Virus record (IMG/VR): IMGVR_UViG_3300017788_003684
Coordinates: 1-35,017 of that record
From: a virus
Strand: one strand, 5' to 3'
DNA length: 35,017 nt
The position numbers were made by a program, and so were the translations under genes. The notes under the pieces were generated by a model, which made no database searches, was not told the origin of the DNA, and saw nothing but the letters and a program-made list of their open reading frames with translations. Below are positions 2,761 through 21,309 of this stretch, one piece after another (the first letter of the stretch is position 1; every line of letters begins with the position of its first letter).

Positions 2761-3042
2761 ATGCAAGACATTTTCAAACTCATAGGTGATCTAGGATTCC
2801 CTATAGCAGTGGCCTTGGCTGGCGGCTATTTTGTGTATCTCACTATCAAGCTTCTCCTACAAGGAGTACTGGGATCTATCAAAGGCATGGCAGGCATTAT
2901 CATTGCCTTAGACAATCGTGTAAAAACCATGAACCACGACGTGGTACGAATCGATACTATCGTAAGCAATGCTCTCGGCCTAAGGCCTGATGTGGATCGT
3001 ATCGCACGGGCCGACGGCAAAAATGATGCCCGGAGGGACTGA
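2761..3042 (+). CDS. Small membrane protein, YvrJ-like (holin candidate)
   Basis: A 93-residue protein with one clear hydrophobic segment at about residues 12-40 (FPIAVALAGGYFVYLTIKLL and onward) and a polar helical C-terminal region. The N-terminal DLGFPIAVALAGGYF resembles the YvrJ-like family of very small membrane proteins (FPIA signature). The third gene of this cluster shares the same N-terminal pattern (GFPI, then GY), so the two look like diverged paralogues. It is first in a plus-strand late operon with a strong Shine-Dalgarno. Late expression, size and topology fit a holin or lysis regulator, but no diagnostic motif proves that. Confidence 0.6.
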   Translation: MQDIFKLIGDLGFPIAVALAGGYFVYLTIKLLLQGVLGSIKGMAGIIIALDNRVKTMNHDVVRIDTIVSNALGLRPDVDRIARADGKNDARRD

Positions 3043-3250: not shown

Positions 3251-3610
3251 ATGGATGTGGTAGAAATAATCAACAAATACGGATTCCCTATAGTTATGGC
3301 TGTAGGGATGGGTTATATCATCAAGTATGTATGGGAATGGAGCACCAAGGAAGTTAAACCTGTGATCAGCGAAGCCAACACTGTATTGATAGCCTTGATC
3401 GACCGCATACGCATGTTAGACAACGATCTCATACGTCTCAATCAAAAGGTCAACACCGTGCTACACTTGAGAGGCAAAATGATTGAAAGTGATCGTGTGA
3501 TGGAAACTGTCAAGGTCGAGAGAGAAGCTGCAAAACAATTTGACAAAGCTGTGCGCATGGATGATAAGAAAACCGAGGACGATCATACCGCTGCTGCCGG
3601 TGAAGGATAA
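3251..3610 (+). CDS. Small membrane protein, YvrJ-like paralogue
   Basis: A 119-residue protein whose N-terminus (IINKYGFPIVMAVGMGYIIK) parallels the 93-residue protein at 2761-3042. The membrane helix is at about residues 10-30. It is followed by an amphipathic region with ALIDRIRMLDNDLIRLNQKV, matching the paralogue's region around ALDNRVKTMNHDVVRID, and a charged tail. The shared plan is: short N-terminus, membrane helix, then a coiled-coil-like helix that could oligomerise. It is last in the plus-strand late operon, followed by the hairpin-rich element at 3615-3679. Holin-like or signalling roles remain inference. Confidence 0.6.
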   Translation: MDVVEIINKYGFPIVMAVGMGYIIKYVWEWSTKEVKPVISEANTVLIALIDRIRMLDNDLIRLNQKVNTVLHLRGKMIESDRVMETVKVEREAAKQFDKAVRMDDKKTEDDHTAAAGEG

Positions 3611-3702: not shown

Positions 3703-4479
3703 TCAATCATCTTCTTTAAGATCACTTATAAATTCTGCTTCTGGTATGCGAGTGCGTGTGTTCTCGCTACCTAGCACTATCACTATACGATCACCGTGTT
3801 CGGTGTCTAGTAACAGCACTATGCAGCCTCCGGCTGGGTTGGTAAATCCAGTTTTTCCTATCAGCACTCGTTTGGTATTTTTAACCACCATTGGATTGGT
3901 GTTGTTGAATATGAGCCAGTACTTGTTCATGCGCACACGCAGTTGCGATTTTTGACTGCTGTCAATGATCACACCATACGCTCTAGCTGCTTTGATCAAA
4001 CTAATGAGATCTCTTGCAGTGCTGACATTGTTGTTGTCAAGCCCGGTTGGATCAGTAAATCTCGTGCTGGTCATACCTAGTGCCTGCGCTTTGGCATTCA
4101 TGGCTGAGATACAGGCAGCAAGTCCTCGAGGATAGTGCTCGCACAAGGTAAGGCTGGCCCGATTGTCGCTTTTGACCATGCTCATTTCGATTAGTGTGCG
4201 TCTGGTCAGTTTTGTCTTGGCTGGTAGTCGGTTGGATAGTTTGCGTGACAGCTCTATGTATTCGTCAAGATCCTGTCGGGCATCCATCACTACCATGACA
4301 GTCATCATCTTGGTTATACTGGCTATGGGACGAACTGCATCTATGTCCTCGCCGCGTATTATTTGTCCTTGAAGGTCTGACACAAGCCAAGACTTGGCAC
4401 TGACGGATTTGCCGTGGACATCTTGCCAATTACCGAATAAGGCAAGAAATACCAATGGATAAACAATTTTATGTACCAA
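3703..4479 (-). CDS. Serine D,D-peptidase of the PBP7 (S11) family
   Basis: A secreted penicillin-binding-protein-like D-alanyl-D-alanine endo/carboxypeptidase that would cut peptidoglycan cross-links in the periplasm. Of 258 residues, 1-23 form a signal peptide. All three active-site motifs are intact: SITK at 54-57 (nucleophile Ser54, Lys57), SDN at 104-106 and KTG at 209-211. The length is close to that of S11 enzymes without the C-terminal membrane-anchor domain, i.e. PbpG-like. The start is TTG at 4479: the codon before it is a stop, and GAGG lies seven bases upstream. It follows the CHASE2-cyclase gene by 41 bases. It may remodel the wall to let curli components assemble, or assist lysis; both are inferences. 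Confidence 0.85.
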   Translation of the reverse strand: MVHKIVYPLVFLALFGNWQDVHGKSVSAKSWLVSDLQGQIIRGEDIDAVRPIASITKMMTVMVVMDARQDLDEYIELSRKLSNRLPAKTKLTRRTLIEMSMVKSDNRASLTLCEHYPRGLAACISAMNAKAQALGMTSTRFTDPTGLDNNNVSTARDLISLIKAARAYGVIIDSSQKSQLRVRMNKYWLIFNNTNPMVVKNTKRVLIGKTGFTNPAGGCIVLLLDTEHGDRIVIVLGSENTRTRIPEAEFISDLKEDD

Positions 4480-4520: not shown

Positions 4521-6584
4521 TTACTTGCTTGTGGCTCTGTAAATGCCATCCCAGTCGCGAGGTAGTTTGGCTTTTTTCATTTCTTCACAGCGATCGATCC
4601 AGAGTTCATAATAATGATCCATCTGTCCATCAAACTCTCCTTTGAGTTCGTGGCATAGATCGATAGCAGTTTGGAATTTTTGAGCTTGATACTCTTTCAA
4701 CATGTCGTTGTGTACTTGTTGCGCCAGCAGATATTCTGTCATAGCACCTGCATCTGTATGTAACGGAGTATAAATGTTGAGTCCGATAGTTTTGCCCTTG
4801 ACTGCGATGCAATCCAGTTCTAGGCATAGAAAATCATCTTTGACCATTTCGTAAGTGTCGGGTCCGATAATTATCAGTACCCCGTATCCTTTGGTTTGTC
4901 CTTCTAGTCGTGCTGCCACTGACACAGGATCGCCCAGCACATCGTACCCCATTTTGCCCTCGGAGCCAATGTTACCTACCAAGATCTTGCCAGTGTTTAC
5001 ACCGGCGCCCAATCCTACTGGGGGTTTACCGATGCTCGCAAGACGCTGATTGAATCCATCCACAGCTTTGATCATCTCCATGGTAGTTTTCACAGCCCTG
5101 TAGGCATGACGGTCATCGTCCAGCGGAGCGCCATGGATGTGCAAGCTGGCATCGCCGATGAACTTGATCAAGCAGCCGTCGTTTACAAATATAGGCTGGC
5201 TAATTGCTGTCATGTATTCATTCATGATCTTGGTGAAGCCTTCTACATCTTGCCCGTACTTTTCGCCTAGGCCGGTAAAGTTGCGCATGTCTGTCATGAT
5301 AACAGATAACACTTTTTCTTCTCCACCTAGTTTGATTAGATCTGGGTTTTTCTGCAGTCTCTCTACTATGATAGGATTCACATAGCTGCCAAACTGCTTT
5401 TTGATCTGTTGCTTCTGCAGGAATTCATTTACAAACTTAATACCATAAGCATGAAGCATAACCAAAATAAGACCTACAGTTGGAGCAGTCGCGTCCACCA
5501 GCCATAAGCTATTGCTATATGCGAAGCTACATAAAGGCCAAATAATACCAATACCAACAACACCTGCAATAATACCAACATAAGTGTACCTTGTTAAAAA
5601 CAGTAAAATCACGCCAAACGCGGCCAGTAACAAAATTTCAGCTCCGTCAGCCCAGTCGGGACGTTGTATGGTCACTCCGTTGAACATGGTACCAATTACC
5701 GCGGCTTGTGCATCGTTAGGAAACATCGCTCCTATACTGGTAGGTAAAGGATTTGAAATACCAGCTGCGGTAGGACCCACAAGGACTAGTGCGCCTTGTA
5801 GGTCTGCAGGCAAGTTTGTTATACTATAAGCGTGTGACTTTTGTGACCAGTCAATCCAGATGCGACCAAGGTTGTCAGTGGCAATTGGTCCAAATTTTGG
5901 CACACGCATTTTTTCCACACCTAATTCATTGAGCTTGACCTGGAACGTGCTATCGCCTGCCGCCACACGCAATACCTCCATGCTGAGACTGGGATACAAT
6001 TGATCATTTACGCTGAAGATCAAAGGCAAGCGCCGGTTTACACCGTCTATTTCAGGTAAGGTGTGTGTGCCACCGATGCCAGCGGCGGCATTTTCTATCA
6101 AAGGAATGTTAGCTATCAATCCTGGATATGTGATGATACGATCCTGGAATTCAGGACCTAGTACTGCGGAACCGGGATTGCGAGGAACGTTCTTGATTTT
6201 GTCCCCGGGCACATTGGCGATGACCACAGGGTACTTCTGCATGACTGCTGCCAAGGCTGAATCTCCTCCAAGCCTATCAGCATCGGGCATGAGCGCATTC
6301 AACACTACGAGACCTGCGCCGCGCTGGTACAAGTCTTCGATCATGCGAGCATAGACATCTCGCTTGAAAGGCCACTGACCATATTTGTCTAGTGCAGCTT
6401 CGTCGATGTTGGCTGTAACGATGTTGTTTTGTGTGGATTCTTTTGACTGTATCAAGGTATCAAAGTAGCGTAATCTCACGCTTTCGAGAAACGCAGGATC
6501 GTTCATGCGCAGACCTAAAATTACAGCTAGAGTAGCCAATGCCAGCCACGGGCTTAACAACAGGGTTTTGAGTTTTTTGTTCAT
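4521..6584 (-). CDS. CHASE2-domain class III adenylate cyclase, membrane bound
   Basis: Predicted receptor cyclase making cAMP from ATP in the host cytoplasm. The ATG at 6584 gives 687 residues. Residues 1-27 are an N-terminal membrane anchor; about 30-305 is a periplasmic CHASE2 sensor (RYFDTLIQ, then TANIDEAALDKYGQWPFKR); three membrane helices lie between about 315 and 382; the catalytic domain is about 425-610. Metal-binding Asp432 (MTDMRNFT) and Asp478 (FIGDAS), adenine-selecting Lys474 and Asp548, and Arg559 of VAARLEG are present. The usual transition-state Asn is Ser555 here, a substitution that may lower activity. The C-terminal 70 residues are helical, TPR-like. An in-frame TTG 33 bases upstream is less likely because it falls inside the preceding gene. 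Confidence 0.88.
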   Translation of the reverse strand: MNKKLKTLLLSPWLALATLAVILGLRMNDPAFLESVRLRYFDTLIQSKESTQNNIVTANIDEAALDKYGQWPFKRDVYARMIEDLYQRGAGLVVLNALMPDADRLGGDSALAAVMQKYPVVIANVPGDKIKNVPRNPGSAVLGPEFQDRIITYPGLIANIPLIENAAAGIGGTHTLPEIDGVNRRLPLIFSVNDQLYPSLSMEVLRVAAGDSTFQVKLNELGVEKMRVPKFGPIATDNLGRIWIDWSQKSHAYSITNLPADLQGALVLVGPTAAGISNPLPTSIGAMFPNDAQAAVIGTMFNGVTIQRPDWADGAEILLLAAFGVILLFLTRYTYVGIIAGVVGIGIIWPLCSFAYSNSLWLVDATAPTVGLILVMLHAYGIKFVNEFLQKQQIKKQFGSYVNPIIVERLQKNPDLIKLGGEEKVLSVIMTDMRNFTGLGEKYGQDVEGFTKIMNEYMTAISQPIFVNDGCLIKFIGDASLHIHGAPLDDDRHAYRAVKTTMEMIKAVDGFNQRLASIGKPPVGLGAGVNTGKILVGNIGSEGKMGYDVLGDPVSVAARLEGQTKGYGVLIIIGPDTYEMVKDDFLCLELDCIAVKGKTIGLNIYTPLHTDAGAMTEYLLAQQVHNDMLKEYQAQKFQTAIDLCHELKGEFDGQMDHYYELWIDRCEEMKKAKLPRDWDGIYRATSK

Positions 6585-6588
6585 AAGA

Positions 6589-7410
6589 TTATTTATTGAA
6601 GGGTAAAAGTGGTTCAATAATTGATTTTAGATCTGGATCCTGCCATATAAAGTATCTATCTATAGAAATCATACTGATATTTTGATCTGCTACAGCCAGG
6701 GTCAATTGATCAATGTCCAAACGTGTAACATGTTGGTTGTGAAAGAAATTTTTATAAGGGACCACAAGGCAACCTGAATCCGACAATGGATCTATAGTCT
6801 GTAGGAATAAATCATAAACAATGAATTCGCTTGGCCATTCAAAAGATAAAAACCATTTGTTGAACATGATAACACCGCCAAAATGTTCAAACATCTGTAG
6901 TATGATACCTGCATCAAAATGATAAGGGGTAAGCACTGTTCTAAACTCAAAACTACTGTTCAATCCTAGCTTTTCTATGCAGGCAGTATAAAAAGGAAAA
7001 AATGACAGCCAGTGCTCGCAATTCTCTCCGTCCATTGGCCATCTTTTTTGTTTATACAACGGATTAAAATCAATTGGTCTGACAAACCAATTTTTTGAAT
7101 CAAGAACAATATAAGAGCCAGACGTTTTTAGAGCAAAAACCAATTTGAAAATTTGTTGTGTGTGCCAGCCCGGTTTGTGTATGGGTAAAATGAAATCATC
7201 ATAAAAATCTTCATAGGTGTATATTTTGAATTCTATCTCAGCCAAAAGAAGCCTACAGTTTTCATCAAACCATTTTAGCCAGGGCCTTGGATTTAATTCA
7301 TTAACAATAATGTTTAGTTTGTTGTTTACAGAATATCTAGATAGACTCCGACACTGTAATAGAAATTCCCACCTATCTCTATCACACGTTACGGTTAATA
7401 ATTGATTCAT
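6589..7410 (-). CDS. Putative glycosyltransferase-like protein (DUF6492-like)
   Basis: A 273-residue cytoplasmic protein without signal peptide. The central YIVLDSKNWFVRP (about residues 100-112) resembles the strand-D-x-D region of GT-A-type and DUF6492 phage/bacterial proteins, with the first aspartate kept. Aromatic residues are frequent (WPMDGENCEHWLSFFPFY; FNKWFLSFEWPSEF), as in glycan-handling enzymes. It is more AT-rich than its neighbours, suggesting separate acquisition. It ends four bases before the cyclase ATG. A role in glycosylating secreted curlin-like proteins or surface glycans is possible but unproven. Confidence 0.45.
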   Translation of the reverse strand: MNQLLTVTCDRDRWEFLLQCRSLSRYSVNNKLNIIVNELNPRPWLKWFDENCRLLLAEIEFKIYTYEDFYDDFILPIHKPGWHTQQIFKLVFALKTSGSYIVLDSKNWFVRPIDFNPLYKQKRWPMDGENCEHWLSFFPFYTACIEKLGLNSSFEFRTVLTPYHFDAGIILQMFEHFGGVIMFNKWFLSFEWPSEFIVYDLFLQTIDPLSDSGCLVVPYKNFFHNQHVTRLDIDQLTLAVADQNISMISIDRYFIWQDPDLKSIIEPLLPFNK

Positions 7411-7420
7411 TCTCTACAAC

Positions 7421-7756
7421 TTAGATAGGTTTCCCGACGTACATCAGGGATTCTTTGCCTATGCCTAACACACAGGCCATACTTTTGTTGAACTGTACTA
7501 TTGTCCACAGTCCAGTTTTTTCGTTAAGAAAGAGAGCGTATCCTGAATCGTTTTGTGCGTCTTTACCTGTCCACACAGGTTTTTCCTTGTGCTTGTTACC
7601 GAGAGAATCAAACACTTTTTCAGGCTTATCACAAACAGTAGGCTTATCAAGTACAGTAGGATTATCAAGTACAGTAGGCTTATCAAGTTGAAACGACTGG
7701 GCGTTGGCTATAGAGCCTGTCAGGGCAAATAGGAACGCCATGATCACATTGCGCAT
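7421..7756 (-). CDS. Small secreted protein with hexapeptide repeats
   Basis: A 111-residue protein with a signal peptide cut after about residue 19 (TGSIANA, then QS). Residues 24-45 contain LDKPTV, LDNPTV, LDKPTV and a diverged CDKPEKV, encoded by nearly identical 18-base units. The rest is a compact domain with GYALFLNEKTGLWTIVQF and a second Cys in SMACVLGIG, which could pair with the Cys in the repeat. A good Shine-Dalgarno (AAGGAG) precedes the ATG and an AATAAATA late-promoter variant lies just upstream. It sits between the PA14/curlin protein and the glycosyltransferase-like gene, so it is probably part of the same envelope programme. Function unknown. Confidence 0.65.
   Translation of the reverse strand: MRNVIMAFLFALTGSIANAQSFQLDKPTVLDNPTVLDKPTVCDKPEKVFDSLGNKHKEKPVWTGKDAQNDSGYALFLNEKTGLWTIVQFNKSMACVLGIGKESLMYVGKPI
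7635..7688. repeat. Three tandem 18-base repeats in the small secreted protein gene
   Basis: Three head-to-tail copies of acagtaggcttatcaagt (plus-strand sense) at 7635-7652, 7653-7670 and 7671-7688; the middle copy differs at one base. They encode the LDKPTV hexapeptides in frame, so copy number can change without breaking the gene. A partial copy lies just to the left. Confidence 0.9.
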
Positions 7757-7777: not shown

Positions 7778-7785
7778 TATTTATT
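7778..7785 (-). promoter_or_regulatory. Possible T4-type late promoter variant (AATAAATA)
   Basis: The minus strand reads AATAAATA, one mismatch from the TATAAATA late consensus, 22 bases before the ATG at 7756 and followed by an AAGGAG ribosome site. It overlaps the stop codon of the upstream gene, so the match may be chance. Confidence 0.35.
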
Positions 7786-10093
7786 GTCTTACTGTGGTTG
7801 TGCAGCCAGCTGGATTGGTGCAGCTCTGCTGTATAGTAAAGTTCATTCCACCAGATTGCAGTAGGTCTAGGGCAGCCGCCCCTCCAGAGTTTACTAGATC
7901 TATATTGGCTTTGTTCTGCTGAGCGCCTTCTTGTACTACAGTAACACTGTGATTGTTGCCTGTCAGTCGGTTGGTCAGCTGATGTTGTCCGCCGTCTTTT
8001 TGTACAACGTCAACGGTGTTGTTGTTTCCATTCACGGTGTTGAACATGATCTTGTTGCCATTGTCAGTCTGTCTAGCCGTGACGTTGTTTTGATTGCCAT
8101 TGATAGTGGTTTCTTGATAATGGCTGCCTAGCGTCACGTTGCTCTGTTGCGTGACTACATTATTTTGAAACCCATTAATATCTACCGCTTGATAATGAGC
8201 ATTGGTGCCTGTTTGCACACCTGTGTTGGTTCTGGCTTGCCCCACTTCAAGAGTGTTTCCATCGCCTGATATCCTCATCTGTATTTCGTTCTGACCTGGT
8301 GCGGTAGTTCCTTGTCTGACAGTCACAGTGTTATCAGATCCAATGACTCGAGCAGTTGACTCACCTATACCTGTTACTAGGTTGCTGTTTCCCACTTGTT
8401 CTATATAGATGTTATTGTTGGCGCCATTGACATCTATACCTATGCTATTGGCCGACGGTCTTGGCCCGGCTCCTGTCCAGTTGTTAATCCTAGACTGCTG
8501 GTCAGGAGTGAGATTGGTAGCGGCTGCAGATCCACTGGTGATGATTTGATTTCCAGGAGCATTGGTCTGAGTGATAGTGCCGCCTTCTATCGTAGGGCCT
8601 AGGGTCACAGCAGTGCCCGACACGTTGACTACACTGGTATTAGAATAAGAAACACCCGAGGTATCAATGGTGAACGAAGATATGTTTCCGGTGGTAAACG
8701 CAGAATTGGTTACTGTGCGTATACCGTCACCGTAGTCCCAGTAGAACTGATGACCTACTCCACCAAGCACATTCCAGTACCAAGCCTCGAGGCTGTAGGT
8801 TTGCCCTGCTACCACGTCCATCCAACCGTTGCTGGTATAACCCCAGATCACCTGCCAGGTATATGTACTATTTTGATTTATTATGGTCTGTCCATTTATA
8901 CGTAATACAAATCCATCGTCTGTATTATTGTAAAAATAGATACGATAGACAGTTCCTGCAGGACGAGCTGTGGTAACGGGAGCGGTGATGGTTCCGGTGT
9001 ACTGTATCACTGTTCCATCATTGTAGTCAAACCAGCTGCCGTCGTTGTTAGGAAGACGTGCATTGGTCTGGAGATACATGCCGTTGCCAGTTATCCCGCT
9101 GTTCACAGGGTTTCCGTAATCAGTTGAATTTGTAGAAGGTGTTCGATAGCTGAAAGGTATCTTTACACAGCCCAGCCAACCGCAACTGTAATTGTGGATA
9201 TCGTATCGCCAAACTTTGAAGTTGAGTCCGGTCTGAACAGACTGCGTGGTAGCAATCACAGCTCCATTGGATTCTACGAAAGTAGCACTGCCGTCAGCTG
9301 GAGTAACAGTGTTTATAGGGGTATTGTATGTGGTCAACACACCATTTTGCACCTTGTTGGTTGTCACGGTGCTAGCAACCTTTGTCTGATACAGTGACTC
9401 TGAACCATTGCTCGAAGTGCTGGTTCCATCGCTGTAGGATGTGGTCGTCACCGGGGTGCGATATACATAAGTGGTATTGCCGCTGTTTACTGTACGAGTG
9501 GTGTATGTTACTGATGTTCCTGTCACAGTAGGAGTTGATGGTGCCGAAACAGTTTGACCAGCGGCCAATGGAGTGGTGGAACCTGTTGACGAAAATGTAT
9601 TAACTTGGGCGATAGTTGGATTCAGCGTACCTGTCCAGGTATAACCGCTGGTTCCAGTCAGACCGTAGTTGGTGCTGAACAACTGACCTGTGTTGTTGTC
9701 GTTTCCTACAAAGAAAAACAGAGATTTTCCACTGCTGTCAGTTCCCATGTTGATGATGCGACCGGTTCCGATAACACCAGCTACTGAACCGTTGCTGTTG
9801 TAAACCTTTGCTTCGTAGGGATTAGTAGCATTGCCGGTCATGTTAAACTGTACATACTGCCCTGTCTGCCAGTTCCACTGTCCGTTGAACCATGGTATTT
9901 GGTACATCGTTCCTGGTTGCGTGCTGTAGATCTGGCAGGTGTTGGTGTACATGCAGGCACTGACATTCCACTGGCTGTCAGCTATCTGGCTTCGTCCAAA
10001 TTTTAGATCGGTGAAGGTGGTCGCGAACACCTTGGTGCATGATGCTATCATGACAAAAAATGCAAAAAAAAGCATGGTAGGCAAACGCATCAT
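7781..10093 (-). CDS. Secreted PA14 and curlin-repeat protein
   Basis: A 770-residue exported protein. The N-terminus is a signal peptide with IASC at 16-19, matching a lipobox, so it may be a lipoprotein (signal peptidase I cleavage after VFA is the alternative). About 30-290 is Ser/Thr/Asn-rich. About 290-465 is PA14-like (IYFYNNTDDGFVLRINGQ, then HQFYWDYGDG), a beta fold that binds carbohydrate in many adhesins. About 560-755 carries curlin-like repeats with alternating N-x-V-x-x-x-Q units (NNNIYIEQVGNSN, SDNTVTVRQG, NGNQNNVTARQ, NGNNNTVDVVQ). The end has two Cys (SCTNPAGC). It overlaps the FecR gene by four bases (ATGA), so it is translationally coupled. It probably uses the neighbouring CsgG pore and may nucleate or anchor fibres to a surface glycan. 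Confidence 0.75.
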   Translation of the reverse strand: MMRLPTMLFFAFFVMIASCTKVFATTFTDLKFGRSQIADSQWNVSACMYTNTCQIYSTQPGTMYQIPWFNGQWNWQTGQYVQFNMTGNATNPYEAKVYNSNGSVAGVIGTGRIINMGTDSSGKSLFFFVGNDNNTGQLFSTNYGLTGTSGYTWTGTLNPTIAQVNTFSSTGSTTPLAAGQTVSAPSTPTVTGTSVTYTTRTVNSGNTTYVYRTPVTTTSYSDGTSTSSNGSESLYQTKVASTVTTNKVQNGVLTTYNTPINTVTPADGSATFVESNGAVIATTQSVQTGLNFKVWRYDIHNYSCGWLGCVKIPFSYRTPSTNSTDYGNPVNSGITGNGMYLQTNARLPNNDGSWFDYNDGTVIQYTGTITAPVTTARPAGTVYRIYFYNNTDDGFVLRINGQTIINQNSTYTWQVIWGYTSNGWMDVVAGQTYSLEAWYWNVLGGVGHQFYWDYGDGIRTVTNSAFTTGNISSFTIDTSGVSYSNTSVVNVSGTAVTLGPTIEGGTITQTNAPGNQIITSGSAAATNLTPDQQSRINNWTGAGPRPSANSIGIDVNGANNNIYIEQVGNSNLVTGIGESTARVIGSDNTVTVRQGTTAPGQNEIQMRISGDGNTLEVGQARTNTGVQTGTNAHYQAVDINGFQNNVVTQQSNVTLGSHYQETTINGNQNNVTARQTDNGNKIMFNTVNGNNNTVDVVQKDGGQHQLTNRLTGNNHSVTVVQEGAQQNKANIDLVNSGGAAALDLLQSGGMNFTIQQSCTNPAGCTTTVRQ

Positions 10094-11199
10094 CGCTGTA
10101 TCAAGGTAATGGTTGTATTACCTCCCTGGTTCACACGGTTCTTGAATTCAATATTGTTTTGTACCTGTATCAGAAGACTGTTTTGCGTCTGCGGAGTGGT
10201 CACGCACTGTACATCACTGCCGTTGTCTCTACACAAGGTAACCACAGGATCGTCCTTGGTCACTACAATTCCACTGGCTTTTTTGTAGTCTGGCAACATT
10301 TGATCTACTTCTTCAAGAAAATTTTCATCTAGGCTGTTACCAATCATGTCAAAAATTCCTGCTAGATAGTTGTTATCTAGGAAGTTACGGCTCAGTCTAT
10401 CCTGGAACATCTGCAGCATCTGGACTTCTAATGCATTGTCTAATCCATCAAATTTCAAGAAATCTCGATCCAACAGATTGTTCGACGATCTTGTTTCTGC
10501 TGCGGCCTGCTGTATCTCCTTGGGGGGCGCCAAGATCAAAAGGTTACTGATAGCTTCTTCGCTGAGTGACAGTACAACTGGTCTCAGTGGAGCTAGACTT
10601 CTTTGTGTGACCCGTGTGGCTTGGAACGGTTGATTGAGGATTACCTGGCCAGCATCGCTGGTGACAACGATCTCTCCGATAACACAGTTGGCTTCTATAT
10701 CACGACGTGTGCGAGTGGGACGATCATCGCGGCAGCTGGGCAACAAGATAAAAGTGCTGGCGCCTATCTCATCCACAGTTGCAGTAAAGTCTGTGCCTCG
10801 TACACTCACTGTGGCTGTAGGCGTATTGATAGCCACCTGCTGTGGGTTGTTCTTAGCTATTTGACCACTGGCATAGCGCACCGTGCCCATGGCCATATTA
10901 AGTGCCACTTTGCCAGTGCCTTTTTTAGGATCGTAGACGAAATCATCAATTACCAGCCGGCTGTTTTCGTTTACCTGCACCCGGGTGTTATCCTGGAAAG
11001 TTATTCCTACCTTGCCCGCAGCAGTTCTCACGGCATCGTTCATCTGGATCGCGGTGCCTTTTTTGCCATCCACGGTGGTTTTTTGCCGTTGTATAGAAGG
11101 CGGTGCATGCAATTGTTCGGTTATGGTACCTATACCGGCCCAGCTGGGTGCCGAAGGCAGCAACAGAGTGCATGACAGTATGATCCATATGCTCTTCAT
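10090..11199 (-). CDS. Periplasmic FecR-domain protein with curlin-like C-terminal end
   Basis: A 369-residue protein with a signal peptide ending near residue 21 (PSAPSWA). Residues about 44-160 form a FecR domain (DAVRTAAGKVGITFQDNTRV, then VAINTPTATVSVRGTDF), a beta-rich periplasmic module used in envelope signalling. The middle is helical. The end reads VNQGGNTTITLIQR, similar to the end of the adjacent curlin (GNTNSFTIIQRN), so the protein may also be a pore client or fibre partner. It lies 13 bases after the curlin gene and overlaps the next gene by four bases. FecR-domain proteins are often encoded beside CHASE2 cyclases in bacteria; one follows four genes downstream here. The transmembrane FecR anti-sigma architecture is absent. 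Confidence 0.82.
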   Translation of the reverse strand: MKSIWIILSCTLLLPSAPSWAGIGTITEQLHAPPSIQRQKTTVDGKKGTAIQMNDAVRTAAGKVGITFQDNTRVQVNENSRLVIDDFVYDPKKGTGKVALNMAMGTVRYASGQIAKNNPQQVAINTPTATVSVRGTDFTATVDEIGASTFILLPSCRDDRPTRTRRDIEANCVIGEIVVTSDAGQVILNQPFQATRVTQRSLAPLRPVVLSLSEEAISNLLILAPPKEIQQAAAETRSSNNLLDRDFLKFDGLDNALEVQMLQMFQDRLSRNFLDNNYLAGIFDMIGNSLDENFLEEVDQMLPDYKKASGIVVTKDDPVVTLCRDNGSDVQCVTTPQTQNSLLIQVQNNIEFKNRVNQGGNTTITLIQR

Positions 11200-11212: not shown

Positions 11213-11992
11213 TCAGTTCCGCTGTATGATAGTGAAACTGTTGGTATTGCCCACGCTCCGGATGTTGGTAGTCATGTCAATGGATCCATTCTGTGTGATA
11301 TTTACACTGTTGCCGGACCCAGCAAGGTCCACTCTGGCCATGTGTCCGTTGATGCCAGCAGCGCCTTGCTGCGTGATAGAGATAGTGTTGCTGGCGCCTA
11401 CTGTCACGATGTCAACAGTGCCTTTGTCACTGGTTAAGTCCAGCGTAGTGCTGTTACCGCCACCACCGGTTTGATTCACAGTAACCAAAGTATTATTAGC
11501 ATCTACGGTAGCTGCTATGCTGTTGTTGTTGCCTCCGCTCTGTGTCACTGTCATGGAATTTCCACTGCCTTTCATGTTGACATTGGTGTTGGCGTTATCT
11601 CCTGCCTGTATGATGTCAATGGTGTTGGCCAGGCTAGATTTTGTTCCAGCATTGTTCATGTCAATGGTAGCTGTAGCATTGTTACCAGTTACTGAATAGT
11701 TGATTTCGCTGCCGATACCACCAGCTGTTCCGGTTACAGCGCCAAGATTAAGAGTGTTTCCGCTACCAGTCTGTGTGATATCTACGGTGAGTCCATCGCC
11801 GTGTAATTTTGAAGGTGTGGTGTTTCCTGCCGCACCCACTCCTCGTATGTAGTTGCTGACACCATCTTGCGTCATAGTTATCGTGGCATTGTCGCCGCTT
11901 TGGTCTATATAGATACTGTTGTCCGCAGCCAGAACTGGCGCAGTCAGCATCATTGTGAATATCATCACAGCAATTTTATTATTTTTATACAT
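11213..11992 (-). CDS. Curlin-like amyloid subunit (CsgA/CsgB family)
   Basis: A 259-residue secreted protein with a signal peptide ending at about residue 22 (TAPVLA, then AD). The mature part is almost entirely curlin-type repeats of about 20-23 residues with Asn, Gln, Gly and Ser at regular positions: SIYIDQSGDNATITMTQDG, LTVDITQTGSGNT, TIDIIQAGDNANTNV, SMTVTQSGGNNNS, NTISITQQG, SVNITQNG, and the last SFTIIQRN. There are more repeats than the five of E. coli CsgA. It lies directly downstream of csgG, which should export it. Major versus minor (nucleator) subunit cannot be decided. The Arg near the C-terminus, and the two curlin proteins in one operon, recall the CsgA/CsgB division. Confidence 0.85.
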   Translation of the reverse strand: MYKNNKIAVMIFTMMLTAPVLAADNSIYIDQSGDNATITMTQDGVSNYIRGVGAAGNTTPSKLHGDGLTVDITQTGSGNTLNLGAVTGTAGGIGSEINYSVTGNNATATIDMNNAGTKSSLANTIDIIQAGDNANTNVNMKGSGNSMTVTQSGGNNNSIAATVDANNTLVTVNQTGGGGNSTTLDLTSDKGTVDIVTVGASNTISITQQGAAGINGHMARVDLAGSGNSVNITQNGSIDMTTNIRSVGNTNSFTIIQRN

Positions 11993-12035: not shown

Positions 12036-13286
12036 TTAATTTTTCTCCTTCTTATCTTGATGTTGCTGTGGTGTGCTAGAAAGAACGGTAACTAGCACCC
12101 ACCCTTTACGGTTGCCTATAACAGAGGCGACCTCTACCCAATTGCCATTTACAGAACGAACTTCAAATTCTGTATCAGGTGGTAATTGCCATGTGCGTTG
12201 ACTTTTTTTATCAGCTTGCCTGTACACATAGCTTAGTTTTTTCAACCAAACACGATCACCAGGAACTAATCCTTTGGACTGTTTGGGCTCTATCGCAGCA
12301 GGTGCAACCGTTACATTTTCTTTTTGTACTGGTTGATCAACTGCTCCAGATCCTGCCGATGGCTGCGGAGCAGGTTTTGGTTCTGGCTTATCTCCTGATC
12401 CAACCGGCTCTGACACTGGCTCAGCGGGCTGGGCTGCCGCGGGTATTTCTTTTCTGGGGCTTTCGGGTGCGGTGTTCTCCTGAACCAACTCATTTTTCTT
12501 TTCCTCCTTAAAACCCCAGATGCCTTTGCGCTGACCTTCCTTGATCAGTTCTACCACTGCTGCTTCAGTGGCTGACTTTACTGCGTAGGTACCTGGCTCA
12601 TTTATAGTCATACCTGCTTCAGCTTCAAATGCTCTGGTTCCTGCATCAAAAAATTTCAGTGCGCTCATGCTGTCAGCACTGCTCAGTATGGTTTTCTGAA
12701 CCGTGACCGCTGCCAACACCTTTCCTGTTTGCACGCTAACTGCTCGTATGCTCACGGTAACGATGTCCTCGCTGTACTGCGTTTGCGCACCTATGCCTAA
12801 CCAACGTGCTCCTGCACCACCACTCTTGGTTGAACTGTCGTAACCTATCACACCACCTTCGATGATGATGCCTGCAAACTGCATGGGCATGAGTGGCTTG
12901 GCGTTAGGACCTTCGTAGGCTTCACGCATCTGTCGTATGATGGTTCTTTCTTTGGTGAGATTGTCGATACCCACACGCTCGACCACTTCAAACCACTGTC
13001 CGCGACCAACATCTTGCAAGGCCTTGATTAGGAATGCTTCTGCTCCTTGTGTTACTGCTGTACTTAAACTTGCGATGTTTGCTGTTGGTCTACGCTGACC
13101 TGTTTTGTCTTGGAAACTATAAACTGCCACCGAAACAGGTTTTCCGCTGGCAGGGGCAGGTATGGTATCAAACTCTTTCTGCAACATACTGGTTGCTACC
13201 ACAGGTTGTTCTATGCGAGCACTGTGCGTGACCGCGCAACCGGATAACGACATAACCACTGCCAGGGCGATTATGGTTTGCTTCAT
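12036..13286 (-). CDS. csgG: CsgG curli-secretion pore lipoprotein with C-terminal SH3-like domain
   Basis: Outer-membrane lipoprotein forming the nonameric channel that exports unfolded curlin. The ATG at 13286 (two bases after the csgF stop) gives 416 residues; E. coli CsgG has 277. LSGC at 14-17 is the lipobox (lipidated Cys17). Residues about 50-265 match CsgG closely: YSFQDKTGQ, STAVTQGAEAFLIKAL, IIEGGVIGYDSS, SGGAGARWLGIGAQTQY and VTVQKTILS. A Pro/Glu-rich linker (about 265-338) leads to an SH3-like domain at about 341-404 (GDRVWLKKLSYVYR, NGNWVEV, GNRKGWV), which in related proteins binds peptidoglycan. The constriction loop (residues 67-75) lacks the bulky aromatics of E. coli. An in-frame upstream extension overlapping csgF has no signal peptide and was not used. 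Confidence 0.92.
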   Translation of the reverse strand: MKQTIIALAVVMSLSGCAVTHSARIEQPVVATSMLQKEFDTIPAPASGKPVSVAVYSFQDKTGQRRPTANIASLSTAVTQGAEAFLIKALQDVGRGQWFEVVERVGIDNLTKERTIIRQMREAYEGPNAKPLMPMQFAGIIIEGGVIGYDSSTKSGGAGARWLGIGAQTQYSEDIVTVSIRAVSVQTGKVLAAVTVQKTILSSADSMSALKFFDAGTRAFEAEAGMTINEPGTYAVKSATEAAVVELIKEGQRKGIWGFKEEKKNELVQENTAPESPRKEIPAAAQPAEPVSEPVGSGDKPEPKPAPQPSAGSGAVDQPVQKENVTVAPAAIEPKQSKGLVPGDRVWLKKLSYVYRQADKKSQRTWQLPPDTEFEVRSVNGNWVEVASVIGNRKGWVLVTVLSSTPQQHQDKKEKN

Positions 13287-13288
13287 GA

Positions 13289-13780
13289 TCACAACCCCGG
13301 TATCTGGAACTGTGCTAGTGGAATGGTTATGGTAGTTGAATTTCCGCCTTGTGTTACAGTCATCTGTATGTTGGCACCATCTTTGTACCAACTGACTCCT
13401 GTCAGTGTGGCACCGGTGGCTAGATCTTTTTCCATCACAAAGGTTCCTGCGCAAGGGTCATTGACCGTGGCGCAGTTACCGTTGGCAAACATGGCAGTGG
13501 CCAAATTCTGACTGAACTGTGCATATATGCGGCTCTCCAAGTTGTTCATAAACTTGGCGATGTTGGTATTTTTCTTGTCTGCCGCTTCCTTGTCTAGTGC
13601 TGCTTGTATCTTGTCAGCACGCTCTTTTTCACGAGTCCTTTCTTGATTTTCTATAGTCAACACATGACTGGAATAGCCCATACCGTTGAATGCCGGGCTT
13701 TTGAATTGATAGTCAGGAAGAGGTGCCGCTACAGCACCAGCGGCAGCAGAAATGAATAATGTGGTTATAATTTTTTTCAT
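13289..13780 (-). CDS. csgF: CsgF-like curli assembly factor
   Basis: A 163-residue secreted protein; E. coli CsgF is 138. The signal peptide ends at about residue 18 (GAVAA). The start of the mature protein, PDYQFKSPAFNGMGYSSHVL, corresponds to the CsgF N-terminus (FQFRNPNFGG type) that inserts into the CsgG channel and forms a second constriction. A charged helix (about 45-75) and a beta-rich C-terminal part (GTFVMEKDL; IQMTVTQGGNSTTITIPL) follow in family order. Two Cys in NCATVNDPC could form a disulfide absent from the enteric protein. AAGGAG stands ten bases before the ATG. It is followed after two bases by csgG, so the two are coupled. No csgE, csgC or csgD homologue is visible. Confidence 0.82.
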   Translation of the reverse strand: MKKIITTLFISAAAGAVAAPLPDYQFKSPAFNGMGYSSHVLTIENQERTREKERADKIQAALDKEAADKKNTNIAKFMNNLESRIYAQFSQNLATAMFANGNCATVNDPCAGTFVMEKDLATGATLTGVSWYKDGANIQMTVTQGGNSTTITIPLAQFQIPGL

Positions 13781-13831: not shown

Positions 13832-14173
13832 CTATGAGAAACTTTTTCCTAGAACAAGGATTGTGGATTTTGTAGTGACAATTCTTTGCTTGATTTCGTG
13901 ATAAAAACTATCCAGTTCTCCACCAAATTTACCCATCATTTGATCCACAAGGATCAAACCAGTGGCGCAATCATTGTCTTTGATACACTGTATCAGCTGT
14001 TCATGCAGGGAGATGTTTTTTTGTAATTCGCTCATTTCCTGAACGATTTTTTCTACCGGTAGAACACAAAAGGCTGGCACAGGTCCATCAGGATGCGGCA
14101 TGGTATCCAGCTCCAACACAGTATACTTTTGTCTCAATTCATCAGCTACAGGTTGTGTCAGTACTATGTGCAT
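13832..14173 (-). CDS. Hypothetical phage protein
   Basis: A 113-residue soluble protein without signal peptide. The first 45 residues look beta-rich (IVLTQPVADELRQKY, VLELDTMPHPDGPVPAF), the remainder helical (VEKIVQEMSELQKNISLHEQ), with two Cys near CIKDNDC. No family recognised. It starts one base after the stop of the small coiled-coil gene, in a run of minus-strand genes going from the exonuclease toward csgF, from which it is separated by 51 bases. A housekeeping phage role is as likely as a link to the envelope operon. Confidence 0.6.
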   Translation of the reverse strand: MHIVLTQPVADELRQKYTVLELDTMPHPDGPVPAFCVLPVEKIVQEMSELQKNISLHEQLIQCIKDNDCATGLILVDQMMGKFGGELDSFYHEIKQRIVTTKSTILVLGKSFS

Positions 14174-14174
14174 G

Positions 14175-14381
14175 TTACCACCTTTGGCTTTGTTCTTTGA
14201 ATGCGGCCAAACGCTGTGCCTTGTGCTGATCTGCTTGAGAACTGTCGGCCGGCTGCTGCGATTGCACTGCTTTCATATATTCTAAATCTGTTTTGATCTG
14301 TTCAATATCTTCCATAAGAAACATGATCTTGGTATCCAAGGCCTTGATCAGGCTGGTCAATTCGTCTATTTTGTTTTCCAA
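14175..14381 (-). CDS. Small coiled-coil protein, TTG start
   Basis: A 68-residue protein with a strong heptad pattern over residues 1-40 (IDELTSLIKALDTKIMFLME) and a Gln/Ala-rich tail ending QSQRW. The TTG start at 14381 is supported by AGGAG nine bases upstream and by the tight junction, two bases, with the preceding exonuclease gene. There is no in-frame ATG nearby. Function unknown; the coiled coil suggests an oligomerising accessory factor. Confidence 0.6.
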   Translation of the reverse strand: MENKIDELTSLIKALDTKIMFLMEDIEQIKTDLEYMKAVQSQQPADSSQADQHKAQRLAAFKEQSQRW

Positions 14382-14383
14382 AG

Positions 14384-14941
14384 TTATTGGCTCCTGTTTT
14401 CATAGCGTTGGTTTACAACCTTGGCCTTTTTATAGACTTCTTGCACTCCAATAGACTGATAGTAACAATCCATGAGCGCATTATGAGCGGCCTTGCGATC
14501 TTTCTCTCGAGGATCACCATGCACTCCAAACAAGGTACGGCTGTCACGGATCTGCCAGAACTGCCAAGGTGTAGGCTTGATCAGCTGACGATAGAGATTT
14601 TCTAAGATCACAATGTCAAATGCTGGTCCTTGACACCAGATATTATCGATACCCACCAAGAAACGATTGAGGTCTCGAGTCATGGTTTCTAGGCTCACAC
14701 GATCGGCTGTGCCTAGTGCTTCTTCTCGCACTTCTTGGCTTTGTTTACCCCACCATGCCAAAGTTTCTTCTTGCACATGCCGACCCAGAACCAACTGTTC
14801 GTCAACATCAACTCTAAGATACAGTCCTGACTCGGCATCAACGTCATCCCCCCAAGGATCGAATTTAACAGCGCCAATGGTGAGGATCACGCTCTCTGGG
14901 CGGGTACTTAGAGTTTCAAGATCCAGCATCACATCTGGCAT
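14384..14941 (-). CDS. dexA: 3'-5' exonuclease, DexA / Rv2179c-like
   Basis: A DEDD-superfamily nuclease of 185 residues. DLE at 7-9 supplies Asp7 and Glu9, FDIVIL provides Asp109, and AHNALMD provides His153 and Asp158, so the DEDDh catalytic set is complete. The short strand-turn MLDLETLSTRPESVILTIGA matches phage DexA and Rv2179c-type proteins. T4 DexA is somewhat longer (227). Probable role: degradation of single-stranded DNA or RNA ends during host takeover and replication. GAGGA precedes the ATG. It heads a three-gene run with tiny gaps. Whether RNA or DNA is the main substrate cannot be told. Confidence 0.8.
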   Translation of the reverse strand: MPDVMLDLETLSTRPESVILTIGAVKFDPWGDDVDAESGLYLRVDVDEQLVLGRHVQEETLAWWGKQSQEVREEALGTADRVSLETMTRDLNRFLVGIDNIWCQGPAFDIVILENLYRQLIKPTPWQFWQIRDSRTLFGVHGDPREKDRKAAHNALMDCYYQSIGVQEVYKKAKVVNQRYENRSQ

Positions 14942-16515: not shown

Positions 16516-16755
16516 TTAATAATTTTTTGGAGGCAAGCTCTCGCTGGCTATTTTTTTCTGCCAGCGGCGCCGTGCAGCATTTTTGGCCTTCTTCCTGGCG
16601 GTGGTTGGTTTTTCATAAAACTCGCGCTCGCGCAGTTCCTGCAAGAGACCACTTTCCTGCACTTTCTTTTTGAATTTGCGCAAGGCTTTTTCCACTTGGT
16701 CGTTGACTACTTCTACACGCAATCCGTTTAGCGTGTTTGGTTGTTTATATCTCAT
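16516..16755 (-). CDS. rpsU: Ribosomal protein bS21 homologue
   Basis: A 79-residue basic protein matching bS21: VEVVNDQVEKALRKFKKKVQ, then the family signature LREREFYEKPTTARKKAKNA. bS21 sits near the anti-Shine-Dalgarno region of the 30S subunit and helps initiation. A phage copy may enter host ribosomes and bias initiation toward phage mRNAs (inference; phage bS21 genes are known from aquatic phages). The ATG lies inside the end of clpX: the two genes overlap by 11 bases (ATGAGATATAA), with GAGGAGA in clpX as ribosome site, so output is coupled to ClpX. Length is near that of host proteins, with an N-terminal extension of a few residues. Confidence 0.92.
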   Translation of the reverse strand: MRYKQPNTLNGLRVEVVNDQVEKALRKFKKKVQESGLLQELREREFYEKPTTARKKAKNAARRRWQKKIASESLPPKNY

Positions 16756-17959
16756 TTGTCTCCTCTGAGGTTGTTTGTGTAATTATCATCTGTTCCGTGA
16801 GCTGTAGTTGTTTTATGCCGTTTTTTTTCAGCTCGCTTATGCCGTACAAAAATGGCAAGGTCACCTGTTCCAGCACTGTTTTCAGGCCGCGGGCACCCAT
16901 GCCTAGATCCAGAGCTTTCTGCGCAATGGCCATTACAGCCGCATCTTCAAAGTCCAGTGTGATACCGTCGGTTTGGAAATAGTATTTCATCTGCGATAAC
17001 AGATTGTTTTTTGGTTCTATCAGCACTCTCACAAGGTCTTCTACCCCCAACGGATCCAGTTCCACACTTACAGGAAAACGTCCGATAAATTCTGGGATCA
17101 TTCCATACCGCATGAGGTCCTCTGGAATCACTTGAGGCGAGCTGTTCGCCACACTGTTGTTTTTGGTAAAGCCTATGCTTCCACCGTTGCACCTGTTATC
17201 GATTATCTTTTTTAATCCATCAAACGCTCCGCCGGCCATGAACAAAATATTACTAGTGTCTACTTCTATAGTTTCCATAGCCGGATGTTTTTTGTTGCCA
17301 TTGATAGTCACACGACATTTGGTACCTTCGACCATCTTAAGCAAAGCCTGTTGCACACCTTCACCACCTACGTCTCTATGTAGGCTTGCGCTTTCGCTTT
17401 TGCGACCGATCTTGTCTATCTCGTCGATAAAAATTATACCTTGCTGGCATCGTGTTACATCATTGTCTGCTTCACTGAGCAACCGTCCAATGAGGCTTTC
17501 TACATCTTCACCTACGTAGCCAGCCTGCGTGAGAGTGGTAGCATCTGCTATCACGAACGGCACATTGAGATATCTAGCTACTGTTTTTGCTAATAGAGTT
17601 TTCCCGCTGCCACTGGGACCAAACATCAAGAGATTGCTTTTTTCCATTTCAATTTTAGGACGGAAAAAAACTCGTTTGTAATGATTAACAACAGCCACGC
17701 TAAGAGTTATTTTGGCCGTGGTTTGCCCCACAACATACTGATCGAGATGTCTCTTGATCTTGATGGGATCCAATGCGCGATTGATCTTGCGGTCAGCCTT
17801 GATGTTTTCTATGCGTTCTTGATCCAGGATACTGCTGCACAGTTCTATGCATTCATTGCATATGGCAGCATCGTTGGCCACTATGAGTTTGTTCACTTCA
17901 TTGCGATCTTTGCCGCAGAAATCGCAACTCATGTGCCTTATGCTTGCTACATTATCCAT
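16745..17959 (-). CDS. clpX: ClpX unfoldase, apparently intact
   Basis: A AAA+ unfoldase of 404 residues; E. coli ClpX has 424. The zinc-binding domain keeps Cys12, Cys15, Cys34 and Cys37. Walker A is GPSGSGKT at 114-121, pore loop GYVG at 147-150, Walker B IIFIDEID at 175-182, sensor-2 GARG at 355-358. The substrate-gating RKH loop reads KKH (223-225). The IGF ClpP-docking tripeptide is present at 262-264, so the protein should be able to work with host ClpP. RDVGGEGVQQALLKMVEGT is nearly identical to cellular ClpX. It begins within the end of the 119-residue gene (8-base overlap) and overlaps bS21. Role inferred: redirecting or accelerating ATP-dependent proteolysis in the infected cell. 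Confidence 0.95.
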   Translation of the reverse strand: MDNVASIRHMSCDFCGKDRNEVNKLIVANDAAICNECIELCSSILDQERIENIKADRKINRALDPIKIKRHLDQYVVGQTTAKITLSVAVVNHYKRVFFRPKIEMEKSNLLMFGPSGSGKTLLAKTVARYLNVPFVIADATTLTQAGYVGEDVESLIGRLLSEADNDVTRCQQGIIFIDEIDKIGRKSESASLHRDVGGEGVQQALLKMVEGTKCRVTINGNKKHPAMETIEVDTSNILFMAGGAFDGLKKIIDNRCNGGSIGFTKNNSVANSSPQVIPEDLMRYGMIPEFIGRFPVSVELDPLGVEDLVRVLIEPKNNLLSQMKYYFQTDGITLDFEDAAVMAIAQKALDLGMGARGLKTVLEQVTLPFLYGISELKKNGIKQLQLTEQMIITQTTSEETNEI

Positions 17960-20631: not shown

Positions 20632-21309
20632 TTACAATCCATTGGTTATGGGATTATAGAAAATCCTGCCGGTGAACACCGAAGTCTTCGTGATGGTGGG
20701 TGTTGAAAAACTTGTAGCGTGTGATCCAGGCCCTCCACCATTGCCTGTCTGTATCCTTATAGCGTAGCGTACTCCAGCGGTCAACGCTATGGTGCCGCTG
20801 CGTTCTTGGGCTGCGTGACTGCCACCGTTATCGACTATGGCATTGCCTATGGTAAATCCAGAAACTGCGGTTAAGCCAATCCATAGATAACTACCATCAT
20901 CGCTGTTGGTAAAAAAAGTGTAGGTTTCTGTAGTAGCGGGAACGAAATATCCTAACCATTGGACGCTGGTGTTTTCTGGGGTGGCTGCTATGGCTAATGT
21001 TGAATCTGCCGTGGCCGCTGTCTGTGTGGCCGTAGCGAACCAGTTGACATCTTCACCATGATAGCCAGTGTATGTTCTACGGTATAGACCTGCAGCCAGT
21101 TCCACCCAAGGACGGCCTTGGACTAATCCACCTGTGTTGGGATTTTCATCTGGGGCGACTAGATTGCCGTTGTAGGGATTGGGCAACTGTGTAATGTCAT
21201 AGATGAACCTAGCGTTGCCGTCCGCTGCTCTCTTGGTGGCAGCAAGATCGAGTTTTGCAATCTGTTTAAGTTCTTTCGTTGCCAGCGTACTGATTCCGTT
21301 GGCACTCAT
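20632..21309 (-). CDS. PA14/GLEYA-like virion structural protein
   Basis: A 225-residue protein without signal peptide. The N-terminus (MSANGISTLATKELKQIAKL) is of a type repeated among T4-like aquatic phage structural proteins. Residues about 75-215 form a PA14/GLEYA-like beta domain: VQWLGYFVPATTETYTFFTN, SDDGSYLWIG and TAGVRYAIRIQTGNGGG, a fold that often binds sugars. It probably belongs to the tail or fibre and may contact host glycans. It starts one base after the stop of the 101-residue gene and ends three bases before the broken structural gene. A second PA14-like domain occurs in the window, in the secreted protein at 7781-10093. Confidence 0.7.
   Translation of the reverse strand: MSANGISTLATKELKQIAKLDLAATKRAADGNARFIYDITQLPNPYNGNLVAPDENPNTGGLVQGRPWVELAAGLYRRTYTGYHGEDVNWFATATQTAATADSTLAIAATPENTSVQWLGYFVPATTETYTFFTNSDDGSYLWIGLTAVSGFTIGNAIVDNGGSHAAQERSGTIALTAGVRYAIRIQTGNGGGPGSHATSFSTPTITKTSVFTGRIFYNPITNGL

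What the first reader, a model, noticed from the sequence alone, without database searches (positions are those of the whole stretch)
4521..6584. A phage-encoded CHASE2 receptor adenylate cyclase
A full-length sensor cyclase with both metal Asp residues, the Lys/Asp adenine selectors and the catalytic Arg is unusual on a phage genome. The transition-state Asn is Ser555, so activity may be low but is not excluded. It implies that the phage may control host cAMP level in answer to a periplasmic signal.
Basis: partly seen in the sequence, partly recalled or inferred. Interest (0 to 1): 0.82.

Follow-up and report, generated by a model that had tools for sequence, protein, structure and literature searches.

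The report
Phage receptor cyclase with swapped catalytic cassette
Many aquatic phages carry, in an operon for curli amyloid secretion, a membrane sensor fused to an adenylate cyclase, and in over half of those examined (including this one) the enzyme half has a rebuilt active site seen only in phages and swapped between phages under the same sensor.

Summary
TM1, a CHASE2 domain and further TM segments precede a class III cyclase, with all catalytic residues except Asn (Ser555). The window is phage DNA.

It is not rare. Relatives occur in at least 585 IMG/VR stretches and in isolates Melnitz and HTVC008M. In 111 of 129 loci with enough upstream sequence, csgF, csgG, curlin and fecR precede it, as here. 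That module, cyclase included, was published for pelagiphages in 2022, although the text never mentions CHASE2.

What appears new concerns Ser555. Of 241 homologues, 139 have Ser and 102 Asn. Ser always comes with Asp548, His482, His484, Ile473 and Gly440. None of 89 bacterial cyclases examined has this set. The Ser type is one derived phage clade in the cyclase domain, but scattered on the CHASE2 tree (15 changes; AU p about 2e-61). Residues 393-610 therefore move between phages as a cassette. dN/dS of 0.02-0.07 argues against decay.

Most likely it is an active adenylate cyclase signalling from the periplasm to a host cAMP receptor. Activity, signal and effector are inferred, not shown.

The parts
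4521..6584 (-). CHASE2 receptor class III cyclase (687 aa from ATG 6584; a TTG at 6617 would give 698 aa)
   Evidence: Pfam CHASE2 1.4e-38 and Guanylate_cyc 2.6e-15; phrog_35576 4.6e-192; AF2 pLDDT 92.1
5649..6503 (-). CHASE2 sensor domain, residues 28-312, predicted periplasmic (TM1 at 5-27; hydrophobic segments 311-357 and 359-378 follow)
   Evidence: hydropathy, AF2 model pLDDT 91.1 with no clear PDB match
4755..5408 (-). exchangeable catalytic cassette, residues about 393-610 (linker helix plus cyclase domain), Ser type
   Evidence: S/N state: 1 change on trees of 393-421, 422-500 and 501-610, against 15 (CHASE2), 14 (TM) and 10 (C-tail); AU test p 2e-61
4920..4922 (-). codon of Ser555, the transition-state position (Asn in bacterial homologues)
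4941..4943 (-). codon of Asp548, adenine-selector position (Ser or Thr in bacterial CHASE2 cyclases)
5133..5141 (-). codons 482-484 (His-x-His), invariant in the Ser type, Ala-x-Trp/Phe in nearly all others
5289..5291 (-). codon of metal-binding Asp432
   Evidence: invariant in 241/241
5151..5153 (-). codon of metal-binding Asp478
   Evidence: invariant in 241/241
13289..13780 (-). csgF (type VIII secretion)
   Evidence: Pfam CsgF 6.5e-08
12036..13286 (-). csgG outer-membrane secretion channel (likely start ATG 13286; the ORF is open to 13454)
   Evidence: Pfam CsgG 4e-50; start and LSGC lipobox-like sequence
11213..11992 (-). curlin-repeat protein
   Evidence: Pfam Curlin_rpt 2e-12
10090..11199 (-). 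FecR-domain protein with signal-peptide-like N-terminus
   Evidence: Pfam FecR 1e-11; phrog_37870 7e-119
7781..10093 (-). large second curlin-like protein (770 aa)
   Evidence: same operon place as the second curlin gene of Melnitz and HTVC008M; no Pfam family of its own
7421..7756 (-). small predicted secreted protein, found in 15 of the loci
6589..7410 (-). gene ending 5 bases before the cyclase ATG (it overlaps the TTG form), weak DUF6492 match; found in only 3 loci
   Evidence: (4e-4, below cut-off)
3703..4479 (-). D-Ala-D-Ala carboxypeptidase-like (S11) gene directly downstream; present in 25 of 218 loci
   Evidence: Pfam 8.7e-44

Best explanation
The gene encodes an inner-membrane receptor adenylate cyclase that is the signalling end of a phage curli (type VIII secretion)/FecR operon. 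Its periplasmic CHASE2 domain probably reads the state of the outer-membrane CsgG/CsgF channel, the curlins or FecR, or a ligand they pass on. Through the transmembrane helices this drives dimeric class III cyclase domains to make cAMP, which acts on a host cAMP receptor, since none was found in the 19 phage records tested. The catalytic domain is a phage-only Ser-type cassette (Lys474, Asp548, Ser555, Arg559, His482, His484) that arose once in phages and has been exchanged among them beneath the conserved sensor. Shown: domains, conserved residues, operon context, restriction of the Ser type to phage DNA in these samples, cassette exchange, purifying selection. Inferred: cyclase activity, cAMP as product, the signal, the host effector, the benefit.
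For: Domains and fold. Asp432, Lys474, Asp478 and Arg559 invariant in 241 homologues. csgF+csgG+curlin+fecR upstream on the same strand in 111 of 129 loci with at least 7 kb upstream, and in six of nine exceptions examined the curli genes lie nearby on the opposite strand. Ser-type residues fixed together in 136 phage sequences, none in 60 plus 29 bacterial ones. Cassette exchange: 1 versus 15, 14 and 10 changes, AU p 2e-61. dN/dS of Ser-type cyclase domains 0.018-0.067. Precedents: Ma1120 with Lys/Asp/Ala/Arg is active and restoring Asn cripples it (PMC4215837); S. meliloti CHASE2 cyclases raise cAMP on a protein signal sensed through an outer-membrane beta-barrel, read by the CRP-family regulator Clr (PMC13001267). 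No cNMP-binding domain in 19 phage records.
Against: No biochemical data are known to me for any Ser-type member. Asn-to-Ser could lower activity strongly. No ligand is known for CHASE2 here. The host of this phage is unknown, so whether it has a cAMP receptor is unknown. FecR was found beside only 4 of 41 bacterial CHASE2 cyclases, so a FecR-CHASE2 relay is not general. Bacterial sampling covered Pseudomonadota only.
Confidence: 0.6

Rival explanations
1. The Ser-type domain is a pseudo-cyclase: it still binds ATP and metal and changes shape, but serves as a nucleotide-gated regulator or dimerisation part rather than as an enzyme.
For: The transition-state Asn is replaced in every member of the clade, along with neighbouring active-site positions.
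Against: Both metal Asp, Lys474, Asp548 and Arg559 are invariant. dN/dS is lower than in the sensor domain in all four pairs compared. Ma1120 shows that a class III cyclase lacking this Asn can be active.
Confidence: 0.15
2. The Ser-type cassette makes another or a mixed product (for example cGMP or a pyrimidine cyclic nucleotide) or has strongly changed kinetics, and phages exchange cassettes to change output or to avoid host control.
For: Coordinated change of positions at or near the nucleotide site (440, 473, 480, 482, 484, 548, 555) and repeated exchange of the whole domain under a conserved sensor.
Against: Lys plus Asp at the two selector positions is the standard adenine pair (as in Ma1120). 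No measurement exists.
Confidence: 0.15
3. The gene is a passenger of the curli operon picked up from an alphaproteobacterium, with little effect during infection.
For: Some curli-bearing podophages lack the cyclase ('frequently', not always, present; PMC9599517).
Against: Present in hundreds of divergent phages with strong purifying selection and invariant catalytic residues. In the five bacterial curli loci examined no CHASE2 cyclase or FecR was found, so the association is kept by phages.
Confidence: 0.07
4. The region is host DNA or an assembly chimera.
For: The family is common in Alphaproteobacteria (234 of 386 genomes).
Against: Virus record; phage genes elsewhere in the same contig; same operon in two complete isolate phage genomes and hundreds of viral contigs; the phage cyclases form a group apart from the bacterial ones in the first tree, though with weak support once more bacterial sequences are added.
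Confidence: 0.01

Closest known systems
T8SS (curli)-FecR-adenylate cyclase module of pelagiphages (PMC9599517; HTVC008M)
   Same: csgF, csgG, curlin, fecR, second curlin and cyclase in the same order
   Different: The window's cyclase is only 35.5% identical to that of HTVC008M and the window's GC is about 46%; it has the Ser-type cassette and extra genes (S11 peptidase, DUF6492-like). CHASE2 is not mentioned in that paper's text (0 occurrences).
Methylophilales phage Melnitz cyclase (QZI95054; PMC9004378)
   Same: CHASE2 plus Ser-type cyclase at the end of a curli/FecR operon
   Different: 40.6% identical. The paper's text does not mention the cyclase (0 occurrences).
Alphaproteobacterial CHASE2 adenylate/guanylate cyclases, such as S. 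meliloti CyaD1, CyaD2 and CyaK (PMC13001267)
   Same: Bacterial CHASE2 cyclases match the phage profile over most of its length
   Different: All bacterial homologues examined have Asn555, and nearly all the rest of the Asn-type set (Ser/Thr548, Ala482, Trp/Phe484); none was found in the five bacterial curli loci examined. The S. meliloti proteins themselves were not compared.
Ma1120, class III adenylyl cyclase of Mycobacterium avium (PMC4215837)
   Same: Lys and Asp selectors, a non-Asn residue (Ala164) at the transition-state position, Arg kept; the spacing Asp +7 and +11 is the same
   Different: Only distantly related by sequence; Ala rather than Ser; the His-x-His motif was not compared

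Membership tests
Class III nucleotidyl cyclase | Guanylate_cyc (PF00211) domain and class III fold | tested here: met
   E 2.6e-15 above cut-off; 3r5g Z 27.4, rmsd 1.6 over 190 residues
Class III nucleotidyl cyclase | Two metal-binding Asp | tested here: met
   Asp432 and Asp478, 241/241
Class III nucleotidyl cyclase | Adenine-selecting Lys and Asp (or Thr/Ser) | tested here: met
   Lys474 and Asp548
Class III nucleotidyl cyclase | Transition-state Asn-Arg pair (not strictly required: Ma1120 has Ala-Arg) | tested here: inconclusive
   Arg559 met; Asn replaced by Ser555
Class III nucleotidyl cyclase | Cyclase activity as a dimer | not testable with these tools
   needs an assay
CHASE2 receptor | CHASE2 (PF05226) domain after an N-terminal TM and followed by further TMs | tested here: met
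   E 1.4e-38; TM1 5-27 and hydrophobic 311-357, 359-378
CHASE2 receptor | Ligand-dependent signalling | not testable with these tools
   ligand unknown
Phage T8SS/FecR/cyclase module | csgF, csgG, curlin and fecR next to the cyclase in one operon | tested here: met
   all present on the minus strand, gaps of 43 bp or less or overlaps; 111 of 129 relatives
Phage T8SS/FecR/cyclase module | Histidine kinase ahead of csgF (podophage version) | tested here: inconclusive
   The gene before csgF (13832-14173) has no PHROGs match; no kinase was seen among the further upstream genes scanned

The most novel reading that the evidence does not exclude
Phages have evolved a class III cyclase active site not seen in the cellular genomes sampled (Asp548/Ser555 with His-x-His) and keep it and the ancestral bacterial-type site as interchangeable output cassettes beneath one conserved periplasmic sensor. 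Exchanging the cassette changes what or how much signal an infected cell makes, perhaps to avoid host control or defence.
Probability: 0.3. Interest if true: 0.8.

Novelty: new variant of a known kind. Interest (0 to 1): 0.58.

Why it matters
If the Ser-type enzyme is active, hundreds of aquatic phages install their own trans-envelope second-messenger receptor together with an amyloid secretion system. That would be a defined route for phages to reset host cAMP from an outside signal. The two natural cassettes under nearly the same sensor (for example L006 and L030, 80% identical in CHASE2 and 50% in the cyclase) are a ready experiment on what the output of such a receptor does for a phage, and two cultured phages (Melnitz, Ser type; HTVC008M, Asn type) make it testable.

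Tried and rejected
Rare or single-case phage gene: rejected. Host DNA: rejected. Ser555 as decay of one protein: rejected. Ser type present in cells: the only hits were MAG contigs L244-L246. L244 and L245 come from one bin with coverage 64 and 5.4 and carry the phage-type curli operon; L246 carries phage head-protease genes, and L245 a phage-type endonuclease. I first took Asp552 for the adenine selector; the canonical Y-D-x-x-G motif shows that it is Asp548 (Asp552 is also invariant). Phage-encoded cAMP receptor (PF00027): none in 19 records. Ser motif outside CHASE2 proteins: none among the complete ORFs examined, 75 of 75 being full-length. Solved structure for the CHASE2 domain: no clear match (best Z 4.6). 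The large second curlin gene of the window has no PA14 match itself and no similarity to the GLEYA/PA14 protein. Promoter and terminator scans were near chance level. The NrdA search only showed that the phage resembles large proteobacterial phages. No literature on Ser at this position was found in the library. Host not identified.

Full report
CHECK OF THE OBSERVATION. The reading frame lies on the minus strand. From ATG 6584 to the stop at 4521 it encodes 687 aa (698 if TTG 6617 is used). Pfam gives CHASE2 (E 1.4e-38) and Guanylate_cyc (E 2.6e-15), both above cut-off. Hydropathy gives one TM at 5-27 and hydrophobic segments at 311-357 and 359-378, so CHASE2 (28-312) is predicted to be periplasmic and the cyclase (420-610) cytoplasmic. 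AlphaFold2 on 88 phage sequences gave mean pLDDT 92.1, and the catalytic domain matches class III cyclases (3r5g, Z 27.4). Numbering from ATG 6584, the site has Asp432 and Asp478 (metal), Lys474 and Asp548 (adenine selectors), Arg559, and Ser555 at the Asn position.

THE WINDOW IS PHAGE DNA. The record is an IMG/VR virus contig of 35,017 bases. It carries a class I ribonucleotide reductase pair, exonucleases, homing endonucleases, an endolysin, a tail spike, virion proteins and a ClpX-like ATPase.

THE OPERON. On the same strand as the cyclase and with gaps of 43 bp or less or overlaps lie csgF, csgG, a curlin-repeat gene, a FecR gene, a large second curlin-like gene, a small predicted secreted protein, a gene with a weak DUF6492 match, the cyclase and an S11 peptidase. 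The isolate phages Melnitz (Methylophilales) and HTVC008M (Pelagibacter) have csgF-csgG-curlin-fecR-second curlin-cyclase in the same order (in HTVC008M the fecR and second-curlin genes are annotated as hypothetical and were recognised by similarity and by Pfam). Scans of IMG/VR found 442, 135 and at least 585 stretches encoding relatives (overlapping sets). Among 129 loci with at least 7 kb upstream, 111 have all four of csgF, csgG, curlin and fecR upstream on the same strand. Nine of the exceptions were examined: in six the curli genes lie nearby on the opposite strand.

WHAT WAS KNOWN. Curli genes in pelagimyophages were reported in 2020 (PMC7029224). The link to FecR, a histidine kinase and an adenylate cyclase was reported in 2022, with an alphaproteobacterial origin (PMC9599517). 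The Melnitz paper treats CsgGF as a possible lysis-timing pore and does not mention the cyclase (PMC9004378). The word CHASE2 has no occurrence in the 2022 pelagiphage paper. So the gene as such is a member of a described module.

TWO CATALYTIC TYPES. In 241 full-length homologues, Asp432, Lys474, Asp478 and Arg559 never vary, but position 555 is Ser in 139 and Asn in 102. After setting aside the three Ser-type MAG contigs, all 136 Ser-type phage proteins also have Gly440, Ile473, Ser480, His482, His484 and Asp548. The 102 Asn-type proteins have Ser440, Asp473, Ala482 (100 of 102), Trp or Phe484 and Ser or Thr548. Bacterial CHASE2 cyclases, matched in 234 of 386 alphaproteobacterial genomes (profile E of 1e-30 or less), are Asn type: 60 of 60 from the first sample and 29 of 29 best matches from a second sample across Pseudomonadota have Asn555. 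A general class III helix motif with Ser (TCN codons only) was in 1 of 150 genomes, against 93 of 150 with Asn. The exception each time is one MAG (Water_Bin34) whose two matching contigs have coverage 64 and 5.4 and the phage-type operon, so it is probably misbinned phage DNA. All 75 complete Ser-motif ORFs examined are full CHASE2 cyclases.

THE CASSETTE MOVES. On the tree of the cyclase domain the Ser type is one clade (support 0.998), and its sister is a group of 18 phage Asn-type sequences (0.998), so it most likely arose within phages. On the CHASE2 tree the Ser/Asn state changes 15 times, and the data reject Ser-type monophyly (log-likelihood difference 602, AU p 2e-61). By block, the changes are 15 (CHASE2, 20-325), 14 (326-392), 1 (393-421), 1 (422-500), 1 (501-610) and 10 (C-tail 611-687). 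Pairs such as L006/L030 are 80% identical in CHASE2 and 50% in the cyclase. L012/L047 are 75%, 55% and, in the C-tail, 81%. Conserved stretches at about 390-398 (KQQIKKQF) and 595-607 flank the exchanged part and could serve as crossover points; this last step is inference. Even a close pair (L084 and Melnitz) shows dS 0.45 in CHASE2 and about 2 in the cyclase.

IS THE SER TYPE ACTIVE? dN/dS in Ser-type cyclase domains is 0.018-0.067 in the four pairs computed, so the domain is under strong constraint (two of the four cyclase dS values are near saturation, and the script stopped on an error before the remaining pairs, so no Asn-type value was obtained). Ma1120 of M. avium has Lys101, Asp157, Ala164, Arg168 at the same spacing, is an active adenylyl cyclase, and loses most activity when Ala164 is changed to Asn (PMC4215837). 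The pairing of Asp at the selector with a non-Asn residue recurs here. This makes activity likely but does not show it.

HOW IT MAY WORK. In S. meliloti, CHASE2 cyclases raise cAMP in answer to an outside protein sensed through the outer-membrane barrel NsrA, and the CRP-family regulator Clr responds (PMC13001267). FecR proteins are, from general knowledge, periplasmic relays from outer-membrane receptors. The phage operon supplies an outer-membrane barrel (CsgG with CsgF), curlins, a FecR protein and a CHASE2 cyclase, so a trans-envelope relay is the most economical model. No cNMP-binding domain was found in the 19 phage records tested, some of which are fragments, so the effector is probably of the host. 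FecR was detected next to only 4 of 41 bacterial CHASE2 cyclases, and five alphaproteobacterial curli loci have neither FecR nor CHASE2 cyclase by these profiles. The phage module therefore looks like an assembly of parts that cells mostly keep apart.

LIMITS. No activity, signal or effector was measured. Bacterial sampling is limited to Pseudomonadota. The Ser-codon search omitted AGY codons. The host of this phage is unknown.

Noticed in passing
L003:10638-11963 (HTVC008M): The second curlin gene of HTVC008M carries a PA14 domain (2.7e-6, above cut-off) plus curlin repeats: possibly an amyloid subunit with a carbohydrate-binding adhesin.
   Followed up: partly
L002:12125-12844 and 13903-14919 (Melnitz): Melnitz has two curlin-repeat genes in GenBank although the paper states that fibre genes are absent; this bears on its pinholin model.
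   Followed up: partly
window 5649-6503: The AlphaFold2 model of the CHASE2 domain is confident (pLDDT 91) yet has no clear match in the PDB (best Z 4.6).
   Followed up: yes
window 2761-3042 and 3251-3610 (+): Two tandem small membrane proteins of the same PHROG (18771), one with a weak holin match, on the strand opposite to the operon.
   Followed up: partly
window 16745-17959 (-): ClpX-like AAA ATPase with a C4 zinc finger on a phage genome.
   Followed up: no
window 32025-33650 (-): Tail spike with an Mtd_N domain and a pectate-lyase-like domain; no reverse transcriptase was noted in the window.
   Followed up: no
window 20632-21309 (-): GLEYA/PA14 adhesin-like domain protein.
   Followed up: no
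window 3703-4479 (-): S11 D-Ala-D-Ala carboxypeptidase-like gene right after the cyclase, kept there in 25 of 218 loci.
   Followed up: partly
L244, L245: Two contigs of one Rhodobacteraceae MAG (coverage 64 and 5.4) carry phage-type curli/cyclase operons and look like misbinned phage DNA.
   Followed up: yes
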